64,000 bases of DNA from Nitrososphaerota archaeon (GTDB lineage Archaea; Thermoproteota; Nitrososphaeria; Nitrososphaerales; Nitrosopumilaceae): contig JAGWFT010000002.1 of assembly GCA_028867755.1 (NCBI GenBank), forward strand, positions 124,001 to 188,000. Direction: 5' to 3'. The notes beneath the pieces were generated by a model that worked only from the letters and a program-made list of their open reading frames with translations, ran no database searches and had not been told where the DNA came from. Shown here piece after piece: positions 14,215 through 19,457 of this stretch; position 1 is the stretch's first letter; every line of letters starts with the position of its first letter. Both the position numbers and the translations under genes were made by a program.

Positions 14215-15969
14215 TTAGAAAAGATCTTGTACTATTTTTCGGATGCCAGTTATCTCGTCTTCTTCCTGTTTTATTTTCTTCTCAATGACCCGTATCATGG
14301 AATCTAGCCAAAGATGGTGTGAGAAGAAATTATGATATGTATTTGCAGCAGTCATCTCATCGTCAACTACAGTATCCTCTAAAAATTTTGTCACTACAGT
14401 ATCTGTAAGTTTTAAGATTCTCTGGTTTAGTTTGACACTTTTAAAAATTGGCTCTAACTTTGAAATATCTTCCTTGAAATCCCCTTTGGTAAGAAGTATT
14501 TTTTCATGCAGAATTTTAAAGTAAACTGCAACAAAAAACAGTGTTGCGTATCTTTTTGTTTTGTGGCCTCCCTTCTTTCCATAACTTAATGCTACTTTTG
14601 CATATTCTTTTACAAGATAAGGATACAACAACAGCCTGCAATCGTCTTTTAATTTTTCATTGAATACTTCGTCATACTTACTTCCCCTTGGTAAGAACTG
14701 TGCAGGAGAACTGTATGATTCTGTAGGTCTTTGTTCAATTCCGGCTACAAATACCTGTATTGCATCTTTGGCAACAATTACTTTTTTGTGGTTGTCAGGA
14801 AGATACTTGTTGTATGTGGGGTCACCTAAGAATTCAGATTGCTGAGATTTTGCTTTACTATCAAATGACCCAGCTTGTATCTCATAAAAATACCTGAAAT
14901 TCTCCATTTGAGATTTGATTGATTTGTGAAAGTCCATAAGGGAAACCAGATCTTTTCCTCTTACTGCATTCTGAGAGTTTCTATATTTTGTAATGTTGTT
15001 CTGGTCCATCTCATCCGCTGCCTTGATTATGGTCACAGTAATACTTCCATCCAGATTGTGAGTTCGCTTTGCATGGTCTAGTACTGAATTGGATGTTTGA
15101 GCACCATTGACTATTTGTGGTGCATGCAAAAGTATCGAGTTATCTTCAAGCTCTTCAAAATCATTTACAACTATAGTTATACCGTTATTATAGTAAAAGA
15201 ACTTGTTTGGCGATTCTTGCAAGGTCTCACGAAGACCCTTGTTTACAGTAGTTTTGAACTGCATCCATTGCCTTATGTTTGATTCAAAGACATAATCCCT
15301 GTTTTTTGTAACAAAGTTAGTTAATTCTCTCAGCTTTAGGATGCCAAGAAGTGTATTCTGGTATCGTAGCTTGCATTCTAGCCTTATGGAGGCCTTTTTT
15401 CCAACTGCTGGCTTTCTTATCCTGTCCCAAAGTTTTTGAATTATTATATCAATATCGTATATCTCAATAGATTCGTAATTTTCCTCATCTACTCTTTGGT
15501 CAGTAACATAAACACATTCAATTTTTAGATTTTTTTCCTGAATCTGTGTTACAAGGCGTGCAATCTCAGGTCGCATTTTTGAAATGTCCTTTGCACGTAA
15601 ACTTTGTACGTCTTGCCTAAACTTGGCAATTGCTTCCATAGAGTGTGATGTACCATATTTTGATTGAAAGAGATAGACCTTGTCTTCAGAAAAGTCAACT
15701 GGTAGATATGCATCTATGCCAAGATCGTTTGGGCCATCAACGATCGCATCAGTTGCATCATCTTCCGTTGCTTCAAAAACTCTTGTAAGCACCCATTGGA
15801 GAAAATTATGGCCTTTTTCAACTTCACTTTGAGCGTCTTCTGCATATTCTTTAACACTATCTCGTATGTTTTGAGCAAATCCTTCTAATGGTTGCCCACT
15901 GAGTGACTGCTGTAAAAGGGGTCTTGCACCTGGTATGTATTCTAGTAATCCATTATTTCTATCGGCCAA
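14215..15969 (-). CDS. AIPR-family (abortive infection/phage-resistance) protein
   Basis: 584 residues. The central block FFYYNNGITIVVNDFE followed by APQIVNGAQTSNSV is the AIPR signature. The N-terminus has NDLGIDAYL (Asp86) then VYLFQSKYG (Gln102-x-Lys104), which fits a PD-(D/E)XK nuclease core. Family members are found in phage-defence loci. Here it stands alone: no methyltransferase, helicase or antitoxin gene is adjacent, only the candidate small RNA downstream and tRNA-Cys upstream. A target next to a tRNA hints at acquisition by transfer, but no integrase or att repeat is visible. Confidence 0.85.
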   Translation of the reverse strand: MADRNNGLLEYIPGARPLLQQSLSGQPLEGFAQNIRDSVKEYAEDAQSEVEKGHNFLQWVLTRVFEATEDDATDAIVDGPNDLGIDAYLPVDFSEDKVYLFQSKYGTSHSMEAIAKFRQDVQSLRAKDISKMRPEIARLVTQIQEKNLKIECVYVTDQRVDEENYESIEIYDIDIIIQKLWDRIRKPAVGKKASIRLECKLRYQNTLLGILKLRELTNFVTKNRDYVFESNIRQWMQFKTTVNKGLRETLQESPNKFFYYNNGITIVVNDFEELEDNSILLHAPQIVNGAQTSNSVLDHAKRTHNLDGSITVTIIKAADEMDQNNITKYRNSQNAVRGKDLVSLMDFHKSIKSQMENFRYFYEIQAGSFDSKAKSQQSEFLGDPTYNKYLPDNHKKVIVAKDAIQVFVAGIEQRPTESYSSPAQFLPRGSKYDEVFNEKLKDDCRLLLYPYLVKEYAKVALSYGKKGGHKTKRYATLFFVAVYFKILHEKILLTKGDFKEDISKLEPIFKSVKLNQRILKLTDTVVTKFLEDTVVDDEMTAANTYHNFFSHHLWLDSMIRVIEKKIKQEEDEITGIRKIVQDLF

Positions 15970-16461: not shown

Positions 16462-17220
16462 ATGAGCTGGTTGACTGACGCCCACATTCACTTGTCTGAT
16501 AGTGAGTTCAAGCCAGAATGGCAGTTCATACTTGTCGCCATGGATAAGATGCGAATAAAAGCATGTTGTGTATCTATGGACTATCAAAGCTCAAACGCAA
16601 CATTAGAACTAGGTACAAAAAGCCCACTAGTTCTTCCGTTTCTTGGAATACATCCAGAAAAAGCTGGAAATGAAGAACTAGAACCAGTATTAGATTTGAT
16701 AATGAAAAACTCTAACAAAATATCAGGTATTGGGGAGATTGGTCTTGACAGGACATATGTCTCTGACGAGAATGGTTTTAATCGTCAGGTTGATGTTTTT
16801 GAGAAGATGTTATCCTTGGCTGAAAAGCTCAAAAAACCAGTATCAATTCATTCCAGAAAGACATTAGAGGAGATATTTTCTATTTTGCCATCGTATCATA
16901 TTGATGGAGTTTTGTTACATTGGTTTGCAGGAAATAAAAAACAACTACAAAAAGCCATGGACTTGGGATGTTATGTTTCGTATGGTCCTGCCATGGTTTA
17001 TTCTCAAGATAAGCAAATTCTTCTCACCCAGACAGAACCTAGTAAGATCTTGTTAGAAACAGATGGACCGGTAAAATTCTCAAAATGTTTTGGATACAAA
17101 ACTACACAAATAACATTTCTTCCAAGTGTTCTTTTTTGTGCATCACAGATTCTAGGTAAAAGATATGATGAGACACTTGAAGCTATAGAAAAAAATATGA
17201 ATTCATATCTTGGCGTATAG
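16462..17220 (+). CDS. tatD: TatD-family metal-dependent hydrolase
   Basis: 252-residue TIM-barrel hydrolase. Metal ligands are seen in TDAHIHLSD (HxH), GIGEIGLDRTY (the Glu), IHSRK (His), LLHWFAG (His) and LLETDGP (Asp). The family includes 3'-5' DNA exonucleases and related deoxyribonucleases, so a role in nucleic acid turnover is likely. Its neighbour S17e follows after 16 nt. Confidence 0.9.
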   Translation: MSWLTDAHIHLSDSEFKPEWQFILVAMDKMRIKACCVSMDYQSSNATLELGTKSPLVLPFLGIHPEKAGNEELEPVLDLIMKNSNKISGIGEIGLDRTYVSDENGFNRQVDVFEKMLSLAEKLKKPVSIHSRKTLEEIFSILPSYHIDGVLLHWFAGNKKQLQKAMDLGCYVSYGPAMVYSQDKQILLTQTEPSKILLETDGPVKFSKCFGYKTTQITFLPSVLFCASQILGKRYDETLEAIEKNMNSYLGV

Positions 17221-17236
17221 GTATAAAATACCCCTT

Positions 17237-17512
17237 ATGCCAACCGGTAACGTGAATAGAGTCAGACGAATTTCTACCGAACTGATGGCTACTTATAAAG
17301 GAGAATTTGGTACTGATTTTAAGCAAAATAAGACACTACTTAACGAAGTTGCAATTGTAAGATCAAAAGGACTAAAAAATGAGATTGCAGGCTATATCAC
17401 GGCCCATTTGAGACGAGAACTTGAAGAGCAAGAAGAAAAAGATGCACAAGCAATGGATCGTGCACAACCTGTAGAAGAAACTGAAGAGATGGAAGAGCAA
17501 CTTATCAGCTAA
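17237..17512 (+). CDS. rps17e: 30S ribosomal protein S17e (eS17)
   Basis: 91 residues from ATG 17237 (MPTGNVNRVRRISTELM). Family features: YKGEFGTDFKQNKTLLNEVA and SKGLKNEIAGYITAHLRREL. The frame extends upstream to 17210 inside tatD, but the basic MPTGNVNRVRRI start matches eS17. The acidic C-terminal extension (EEQEEKDAQAMDR, then EETEEMEEQ) is longer than in many eS17 proteins. Confidence 0.93.
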   Translation: MPTGNVNRVRRISTELMATYKGEFGTDFKQNKTLLNEVAIVRSKGLKNEIAGYITAHLRRELEEQEEKDAQAMDRAQPVEETEEMEEQLIS

Positions 17513-17571: not shown

Positions 17572-18351
17572 ATGATAACAGTAAAACTTCTAGGTGGTGC
17601 CAAGCGGTCTTTTCCATCTGACAAGTTATCGATTGAAAACTCTATGATGGTATCTGATCTGCTTGTCTTTCTTCAGGGCTCTGTTCCAAAAAATATGCCT
17701 GCATTTGATACAAGAAATATCCTAGTTGCAATAAATGGAATAGACTCTTCTGTTTTGCAAGGAGGTGACACATTACTCAAGGATGGAGATGTTGTCAGTA
17801 TAATTCCAGTAGTACATGGCGGCAGTAAAACTAGAGTCAGCTTTTGTATCTCAAATCACAATGTAGAACTAATCCGACTAGGAAAAACTGATGATGATCC
17901 TATATCACTTCTTGATAGTCTGAGAACAAGATTTCCTGATCTAATCATTCAGGGTGTTCGATTACAATATGTTCTAAATGTCAACCATGCAAAGAGAGTA
18001 ATTGGAATCTCGTTGGAGGCAAGAAAGACTGGTACGTTGCTTTCTAACAAAATTGAGACTGATATATTGATGAGATTTGCAGGTACTAGACAGATTAATG
18101 ATGCAATCAATAAAGTAGGATTACAAAAGGACCAAGACTCTATCTTGGTTTTGATTGGAAAAAAGTCTCTAATCAACAAGCTTTTTGCTGTGATCTATGG
18201 CATGACCAAGCCAATAACCCCATTTCCTAATAATGCTAATTTCATAAAGAAAGAATTCAATATAACAAAGAAAGAACTTGACTGTGTAGTATTATCAAAG
18301 GATCCACTAGAGGATCTACTAGTTGAGAGATCTGCAGTATTACTCCATTGA
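17572..18351 (+). CDS. Ubiquitin-like (MoaD/ThiS/SAMP) domain fused to KEOPS subunit Cgi121
   Basis: 259 residues in one uninterrupted frame. Residues 1-84 are a beta-grasp domain of MoaD/ThiS type (MITVKLLGGAKRSF; ILVAINGIDSS; LKDGDVVSIIPVVHGG) ending in Gly83-Gly84. Residues about 87-259 match Cgi121, the KEOPS subunit that binds the tRNA tail during t6A synthesis: NHAKRVIGISLEARKTGT, ETDILMRFAGTRQINDAI, DSILVLIG. Fusion of a Gly-Gly ubiquitin-like module ahead of another protein recalls ubiquitin-fusion precursors; whether it is cleaved is unknown. The 3' end overlaps the THUMP gene by 12 nt. Confidence 0.82.
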   Translation: MITVKLLGGAKRSFPSDKLSIENSMMVSDLLVFLQGSVPKNMPAFDTRNILVAINGIDSSVLQGGDTLLKDGDVVSIIPVVHGGSKTRVSFCISNHNVELIRLGKTDDDPISLLDSLRTRFPDLIIQGVRLQYVLNVNHAKRVIGISLEARKTGTLLSNKIETDILMRFAGTRQINDAINKVGLQKDQDSILVLIGKKSLINKLFAVIYGMTKPITPFPNNANFIKKEFNITKKELDCVVLSKDPLEDLLVERSAVLLH

Positions 18352-18861
18352 GTCTCGCTTTAGTTTTAGAGTGCTTACTATGCCCTGTTCTTTTAGTACT
18401 GATACCCCAGTCATGTTTCCAAGAACTTCAACTATGATATTCCAGTCATATTTTTCAAGAGATACTTTGTTTTCTACAATTTCTGCAATAGAGTCAATTA
18501 TCTCTTTAGAGGACAACTCTGATCCACGTTTTTCAATTGTGATTCTATAGGAATCATCTGATTGCATATTCCCAATGTGCCTTTGTACAGATTCCACTAT
18601 TGCACCAAGCGTAGTCTTGGTTGACTCTTGAATTGGTATGAACCTATGACAGTATCTAACGCTCCAAGGCTCATCAAGAATTTTTGTTCTAATCTTACCT
18701 ACAGCTTCGAAAGGATCTAGCGATGTATCAACTATAACTATGCCTGAAAAATCACTACTCTTCGCCTTTACCTCATCATCTCCTAGTGTTTGAAGAATGT
18801 TTGAAATCTCGTCAGATGCTTCTTCTTCAAGATGTCTGCTGCATGTTACAATTAGATTCAA
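18340..18861 (-). CDS. Stand-alone THUMP-domain protein (Tan1/THUMPD1-like)
   Basis: 173 residues. The THUMP signature is clear: PWSVRYCHRFIPIQ, SYRITIEKRGSELSS, and IIVEVLGNMTGVSVLK. Stand-alone THUMP proteins of the Tan1 type bind tRNA and assist the N4-acetylcytidine acetyltransferase; the TmcA partner is not in the window. The gene overlaps sua5 by 4 nt, so the two form an operon, and it converges on the Cgi121 fusion gene. Confidence 0.85.
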   Translation of the reverse strand: MNLIVTCSRHLEEEASDEISNILQTLGDDEVKAKSSDFSGIVIVDTSLDPFEAVGKIRTKILDEPWSVRYCHRFIPIQESTKTTLGAIVESVQRHIGNMQSDDSYRITIEKRGSELSSKEIIDSIAEIVENKVSLEKYDWNIIVEVLGNMTGVSVLKEQGIVSTLKLKRDSME

Positions 18862-19457
18862 ACTAGTGCAAGTAGCTCCTTTTCATTAATTTTTCCTTGA
18901 CGTATTATGCGAAATTTACTTCCGACCACTTCTACTATGGTAGACTCTATGGGATTTGGTATTATTCCACCGTCTAACAGTATGTCATACCCTTCTAACT
19001 TGCCTATTATTTCCTGAGAGTTTGATGAAGATGGATGACCAGAAACATTTGCACTTGTTCCTACAAGCAATCTGCATTCTTTGAGAAGATCTAGTGTGCA
19101 TGGATGATTTGGTACGCGCACTGCTATTTTTTTATCAAGACCAAGAGATTCTGCAATTTTTTGTTCTTTTATGTCAAGAAGTAACGTTAACGGACCTGGC
19201 CAGAACTTGGCTGCAATTTTCTTTGACAGATCATCAAAAATGGCGATCTTTGATATCTCAGAGATAGAAAAACCCAGAACAGGAAGTTGCTTTGATTCTT
19301 CTCGCCCCTTGATTCTGTAAATCATTCTAACTGACTTGCTGTTAAATGGATCACATCCTATTCCATATACTGTATCTGTTGGGAAAACCACAACACCACC
19401 ATTTTTGACTATCTTTGATGCTGTGATGATTCCATTATGGTCACAAGGCACGATCAT
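18858..19457 (-). CDS. sua5: Threonylcarbamoyl-AMP synthase (Sua5/YrdC)
   Basis: 199 residues covering the YrdC domain: GGVVVFPTDTVYGIGCDP at the start, KGREESKQLPVLG, WPGPLTLLL, IAVRVPNHP and GTSANVSG. It makes threonylcarbamoyl-AMP from Thr, bicarbonate and ATP, the first step of t6A formation on ANN-decoding tRNAs; KEOPS does the transfer. It lacks the extra C-terminal Sua5 domain (about 340 residues in full-length Sua5), so it is a YrdC-length enzyme. Confidence 0.93.
   Translation of the reverse strand: MIVPCDHNGIITASKIVKNGGVVVFPTDTVYGIGCDPFNSKSVRMIYRIKGREESKQLPVLGFSISEISKIAIFDDLSKKIAAKFWPGPLTLLLDIKEQKIAESLGLDKKIAVRVPNHPCTLDLLKECRLLVGTSANVSGHPSSSNSQEIIGKLEGYDILLDGGIIPNPIESTIVEVVGSKFRIIRQGKINEKELLALV

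What the first reader, a model, noticed from the sequence alone, without database searches (positions are those of the whole stretch)
17572..18351. Ubiquitin-like domain ending in Gly-Gly fused to KEOPS subunit Cgi121
One frame joins an 84-residue MoaD/ThiS/SAMP-type beta-grasp domain ending VVHGG to a full Cgi121 domain. Residues 83-84 are the Gly-Gly that E1-like enzymes and JAMM proteases use in SAMP/Urm1/ubiquitin chemistry. It could be a processed precursor that yields a free modifier plus Cgi121, or a tethered modifier controlling t6A synthesis. Sua5 and a tRNA-binding THUMP protein lie alongside. I know of no described system that does this.
Basis: partly seen in the sequence, partly recalled or inferred. 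Interest (0 to 1): 0.75.

Follow-up and report, generated by a model that had tools for sequence, protein, structure and literature searches.

The report
Ubiquitin-like protein fused to KEOPS subunit
In ammonia-oxidising archaea one gene joins a small ubiquitin-like protein to a tRNA-modification subunit, a fusion first reported in 2010; here we show it arose from two neighbouring genes and that its Gly-Gly join never changes, which makes it likely that the cell cuts the two apart.

Summary
The ORF 17572-18351 is a 259-residue protein: a ThiS/Urm1-type beta-grasp domain ending exactly at His82-Gly83-Gly84, then a complete Cgi121. The claim that nobody has described it is wrong: Makarova & Koonin (2010, PMC2948915) reported this fusion as conserved in all Thaumarchaea, beside S17e. 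What is added here: (1) His-Gly-Gly is invariant in 96 of 96 class members, fused or not, although the Ubl halves fall to 19% identity; the residues just after it vary freely. (2) In sister families the same locus holds two adjacent, often overlapping genes, and the Ubl gene usually stops at HGG-stop or a few codons beyond. The fusion is therefore that gene pair with the stop lost, several times over. (3) The only other Ubl domain found in this genome is also fused (Ubl-E1), so no free Ubl gene was found. (4) Two JAMM proteases with intact motifs are present. (5) About 20 close relatives have lost E1 entirely, yet keep the fusion and its HGG with no detectable relaxation. Best reading: a precursor cut after Gly84, as in MoaX, giving a Urm1-like protein plus Cgi121. 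Cleavage is inferred, not shown, and the Ubl probably also has an E1-independent role.

The parts
17572..18351 (+). Ubl-Cgi121 fusion gene (259 aa)
17572..17823 (+). Ubl half, residues 1-84, ThiS/Urm1-type beta-grasp
   Evidence: ThiS E 3.4e-9 up to Gly84; Urm1 E 2.2e-5 for the half alone; AlphaFold2 and Foldseek
17815..17823 (+). His82-Gly83-Gly84 junction codons (CAT GGC GGC), next residue Ser85
   Evidence: invariant in 96/96 class members, fused and separate
17824..18351 (+). Cgi121 half, residues 85-259, and stop codon
   Evidence: NF011465 E 2.2e-32, CGI-121 E 2.7e-9; Foldseek to Bud32-Cgi121 structures
17210..17512 (+). ribosomal protein S17e gene directly upstream, same strand, in nearly all loci examined
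   Evidence: Ribosomal_S17e E 1.2e-15; synteny
16462..17220 (+). TatD-like nuclease gene, first gene of the TatD-S17e-Ubl-Cgi121 row
   Evidence: TatD_DNase E 4.9e-47; synteny
18340..18861 (-). THUMP-domain protein, convergent, 3' end overlaps the Cgi121 3' end by 12 bases
   Evidence: THUMP E 3.4e-6; synteny
18858..19457 (-). Sua5, the first enzyme of t6A synthesis
   Evidence: Sua5_yciO_yrdC E 4.8e-53

Best explanation
The gene is a fused form of an old two-gene cassette: a Urm1/SAMP-type Ubl gene followed, often with overlap, by cgi121. Most likely the 259-residue chain is cut after Gly84 (HGG|S), probably by one of the genome's two JAMM metalloproteases. That would release an 84-residue Ubl with a mature HGG end, and a Cgi121 that starts at Ser85 and joins Kae1, Bud32 and Pcc1 in KEOPS. 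Shown: the anatomy, the invariant HGG, the gene-pair state in relatives ending at or near HGG, and the presence of JAMM, E1 and the KEOPS subunits. Inferred: the cleavage itself, the protease, and what the released Ubl does. Because relatives without E1 keep it, the Ubl probably has a role near KEOPS that does not need E1, in addition to any modifier or sulfur-carrier role where E1 exists.
For: HGG is invariant in 96/96 class members; only one other of 89 Ubl columns is invariant, and the lowest Ubl identity is 19%. In 65 fusions of the window's family, positions 85, 86 and 87 changed 16, 18 and 18 times by parsimony, positions 82-84 never. In sister families the pair is separate and the Ubl ends at HGG-stop (17 of 26 pairs that are not recent breaks) or within a few codons. 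A Ubl ending at or near HGG next to cgi121 also occurs outside the class. Fused and separate states interchange at least 4-5 times on the tree, plus fusions in two deep families. Half of the distinct fusions, this one included, have no in-frame start codon within 22 codons after GG, so free Cgi121 could there arise only by cutting (this gene). The residue after GG is Ser in 55 of 97; M. tuberculosis MoaX is cut at Gly82-Ser83 and needs Gly81, and DRJAMM cuts a MoaD-MoaE fusion. Both JAMM proteins in this genome have an intact HxHP...S..D motif. No free Ubl gene was found in this genome. Of 74 fused or extended Ubls, 73 come from genomes with a JAMM match.
Against: No cleavage has been seen and proteomic supplements could not be searched. 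JAMM genes are nearly universal in the class, so their presence says little; the JAMM/extension association rests mostly on one family without JAMM (Fisher p 0.004, not corrected for descent). If the Ubl existed only to be charged by E1, its full retention in E1-less genomes would be odd. An invariant GG could also be needed for folding or for binding KEOPS.
Confidence: 0.5

Rival explanations
1. Stable fusion: the Ubl stays joined to Cgi121 and works in place as a KEOPS part, or as a folding and solubility aid for Cgi121; the HGG stretch is kept for structure or for binding a partner, not for chemistry. In pair species the two proteins would bind each other without a covalent join.
For: About 20 family genomes with no ThiF-type E1 keep the whole Ubl half with HGG. 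Its rate relative to Cgi121 on those branches is not raised (odds ratio 1.13, p 0.22). Adjacency and overlap in relatives fit a physical complex. Cgi121 overexpressed alone in S. islandicus was not detected but was when co-expressed with Bud32.
Against: A permanent join does not explain why the free-standing Ubl in most relatives ends exactly at HGG. The stretch right after GG is poorly conserved and modelled with low confidence. Most E1 losses are recent: only 0.85 changes per site lie surely after loss.
Confidence: 0.33
2. Tethered modifier: the Ubl on Cgi121, or after release, is charged by the genome's E1 and conjugated to KEOPS or other proteins, or serves as a sulfur carrier for tRNA thiolation with NcsA. 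This is the Makarova and Koonin suggestion.
For: The genome has a Ubl-E1 gene and an NcsA-like gene. Sulfolobus Urm1, which also ends HGG, is conjugated to 330 proteins.
Against: The E1 carries its own fused Ubl and sits beside a threonine-synthase-like gene; both are missing together in E1-less relatives while the Cgi121 fusion stays. E1 cannot act on a blocked C-terminus without prior cutting. NcsA is present with or without E1.
Confidence: 0.12
3. Neutral fusion: an occasional loss of the stop codon between two overlapping genes, with no functional meaning beyond equal dosage.
For: Fusion and separation interchange on the tree and overlaps of a few codons are common.
Against: The fusion has held in essentially the whole family and arose several times; HGG has not drifted.
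Confidence: 0.05

Closest known systems
Ubl-Cgi121 fusion of Thaumarchaeota, Makarova & Koonin 2010 (PMC2948915)
   Same: the same protein, described as conserved in all Thaumarchaea then available and next to S17e
   Different: that paper had few genomes; the passages read do not discuss the gene-pair ancestors, the HGG conservation across both states, or E1-less lineages
MoaX, fused MoaD-MoaE of M. tuberculosis (PMC4326299), and D. radiodurans MoaD-MoaE (PMC8832034)
   Same: Ubl at the N-terminus, Gly-Gly at the junction, Ser next in MoaX, partner protein behind; separate genes in relatives
   Different: partner is MoaE, not Cgi121; cleavage is shown there and only inferred here
Sulfolobus Urm1 (PMC12625751; gene context in PMC2948915)
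   Same: Urm1-type Ubl ending His-Gly-Gly, gene beside S17e
   Different: free-standing there, with conjugation shown
Eukaryotic ubiquitin-ribosomal protein precursors (own knowledge)
   Same: Ubl made as a linear fusion to a translation-related protein and released by cutting after Gly-Gly
   Different: unrelated partner; not the same family

Membership tests
ThiS/MoaD/Urm1 ubiquitin-like family | beta-grasp fold | tested here: met
   ThiS E 3.4e-9; Foldseek to Urm1 and SAMP1 structures
ThiS/MoaD/Urm1 ubiquitin-like family | Gly-Gly at the end of the domain | tested here: met
   HGG invariant in 96/96
ThiS/MoaD/Urm1 ubiquitin-like family | free C-terminal glycine | tested here: inconclusive
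   blocked by Cgi121 as encoded; free in pair species; cutting not testable here
SAMP/Urm1 modifier | activation by an E1 | tested here: inconclusive
   E1 present in this genome but absent in about 20 relatives that keep the Ubl
SAMP/Urm1 modifier | conjugation to lysines or sulfur transfer | not testable with these tools
   needs experiment
Cgi121 | family profile and fold | tested here: met
   NF011465 E 2.2e-32, above its cut-off; Foldseek to Bud32-Cgi121
Cgi121 | KEOPS partners in the genome | tested here: met
   Kae1 and two Pcc1-family genes by Pfam; Bud32 recognised by eye from its sequence motifs near Kae1
Cgi121 | binds the tRNA 3' CCA end | not testable with these tools
   shown for M. 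jannaschii Cgi121
MoaX-like cleaved Ubl precursor | Ubl-GG-partner order with separate genes in relatives | tested here: met
MoaX-like cleaved Ubl precursor | a suitable protease in the genome | tested here: met
   two JAMM genes with intact motif; the MoaX protease itself is unidentified in the source read
MoaX-like cleaved Ubl precursor | cleavage after Gly-Gly | not testable with these tools
   needs proteomics or an in vitro assay

The most novel reading that the evidence does not exclude
A Urm1-type ubiquitin-like protein that works without any E1: in E1-less ammonia-oxidising archaea its HGG end serves KEOPS directly, as a cut or joined subunit, with no adenylation or conjugation. That would be a non-covalent use of a ubiquitin tail in tRNA modification.
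Probability: 0.22. Interest if true: 0.8.

Novelty: already known. Interest (0 to 1): 0.5.

Why it matters
The fusion has been in print since 2010; no functional study of it was found, and none of the four KEOPS papers searched here turned up a mention. The gene-pair ancestors, the invariant HGG and the E1-less lineages turn a vague 'linked to SAMPylation' idea into two testable ones: is it cut after Gly84, and what does a ubiquitin tail do where no E1 exists? Either answer would bear on how the ubiquitin family and the t6A machinery came to be connected.

Tried and rejected
Chance or assembly artefact: rejected, since dozens of species share the fusion at the same place. Separate Cgi121 by internal translation start: excluded for this gene and about half of the distinct fusions, which have no in-frame start codon in the 22 codons after GG. 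E1-less genomes as mere incompleteness: rejected for the core set, since 20 genomes (90-99% complete) lack E1 by two different queries, ten of them also lack the neighbouring threonine-synthase-like gene, and all have only one ThiS match; G116 and G160 were set aside because the neighbour gene lies at a contig end. E1-less retention as proof of E1-independence: not claimed, because most losses are young. One Pfam call failed on wrong coordinates and was repeated. The G105 split (probable frameshift error in an A run) and the G028 split (in-frame TGA after HGGA) were not counted as secure evidence of fission.

Full report
What is there. The ORF at 17572-18351 encodes 259 residues. Residues 1-84 match ThiS (E 3.4e-9) up to the last profile position at Gly84, and Urm1 when scanned alone (E 2.2e-5); residues 108-258 match the Cgi121 equivalog model (E 2.2e-32). 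AlphaFold2 gives two confident domains and a low-confidence stretch at residues 81-90. Foldseek finds Cgi121 structures first, then Urm1 and SAMP1. The junction reads IIPVVHGG|SKTR.

Prior art. Makarova & Koonin 2010 state that a Ubl-Cgi121 fusion is conserved in all Thaumarchaea then sequenced, is apparently cotranscribed with S17e in N. maritimus, and may mean control of KEOPS by SAMPylation (PMC2948915). They also mention the Ubl-E1 fusion in Thaumarchaeota. Term searches of four later KEOPS papers turned up no mention of the fusion.

Conservation and origin. A class sample of 200 genomes was searched for Cgi121 and the surrounding DNA read. In the window's family the fusion is near universal. 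In other families the same place, TatD-S17e-Ubl-Cgi121 facing THUMP and Sua5, holds two genes. The Ubl gene then ends at HGG-stop in 17 of the 26 clear pairs, and a few codons later in the rest (for instance HGG-Cys-Leu-stop in family f2). In deeper lineages a further gene of about 540 bases lies between them (L096, L098). Fusion also occurs in part of family f3 and, with HGG at the join, in G032 and G047 of deeper families. The tree needs five changes between fused and separate, four of them forced by well-supported branches; two of the five rest on G028 and G105, whose splits could be sequencing errors. Outside the class a Ubl ending at or near HGG adjoins or lies near cgi121 in a few genomes.

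The HGG. Over 96 class members, 68 fused and 28 separate (the 28 include G028 and G105), only four Ubl columns are invariant: one glycine and H-G-G. In 65 family fusions the three residues behind GG changed 16-18 times each, HGG never.

Machinery. This genome's only other ThiS-type domain is the N-terminus of a Ubl-E1 protein with its own ...AVAGG|SELSS junction (L123:1925-3241), so no free Ubl gene was found; a very diverged one could be missed. It has two JAMM proteins with intact motifs, NcsA, Kae1 and two Pcc1-family genes, and a Bud32-like gene recognised by eye.

E1-less relatives. Twenty genomes of the family lack E1 by both a profile and a protein query, and ten of them were checked and also lack the threonine-synthase-like gene that adjoins it. 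All keep the fusion and its HGG. Ubl changes relative to Cgi121 are not raised on those branches (odds ratio 1.13, p 0.22). This points to a role without E1. But only 0.85 changes per site lie surely after loss, and zero change on those branches is seen in 77 of 257 columns, so the point is suggestive only. Five of the twenty have weak profile matches below the E1 level, taken as unrelated Rossmann proteins.

Mechanism. The pattern matches MoaX and D. radiodurans MoaD-MoaE, where a Ubl fused to its partner is cut to be active, at GG|Ser in MoaX. I therefore favour cutting after Gly84 (0.5) over a permanent join (0.33) and an E1-charged tether (0.12). Genomes without JAMM exist in family f7, where the Ubl is separate and ends bare at HGG; this fits but is one clade.

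Verdict. Observation right, novelty claim wrong, processing idea strengthened, function still open.

Noticed in passing
L133:1033-2553 (G165, family f7): A ThiS-type domain (E 2.3e-10) without Gly-Gly is fused to the N-terminus of a MiaB/MtaB-like methylthiotransferase (UPF0004, Radical SAM, TRAM). If it makes ms2t6A, this is another Ubl-t6A link, in a family where no JAMM was found.
   Followed up: partly
L123:706-3241 (G000:C24): A threonine-synthase-like PLP enzyme directly precedes the Ubl-E1 fusion, and in ten E1-less relatives checked both are missing; possibly a protein-thiocarboxylate amino-acid pathway.
   Followed up: partly
L047, L055, L061, L105: In family f2 the free Ubl ends HGG-Cys-Leu/Ile or HGG-Gly-Cys-Leu, a short tail that would need trimming to expose Gly-Gly.
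   Followed up: no
window 14215-15969 (-): 584-residue AIPR protein (Pfam E 2.5e-55), best PADLOC match AbiU (4.7e-43): a likely abortive-infection phage defence gene.
   Followed up: no
G000:C24:636016 and G000:C35:76865: Two Pcc1-family genes, fitting the Pcc1/Pcc2 pair described for archaeal KEOPS.
   Followed up: no
class sample, family f14 (G008, G012, G041, G057): No ThiS-type domain was found in any of these four genomes, and none of them is among the listed Cgi121 matches: a lineage that may do without both.
   Followed up: no
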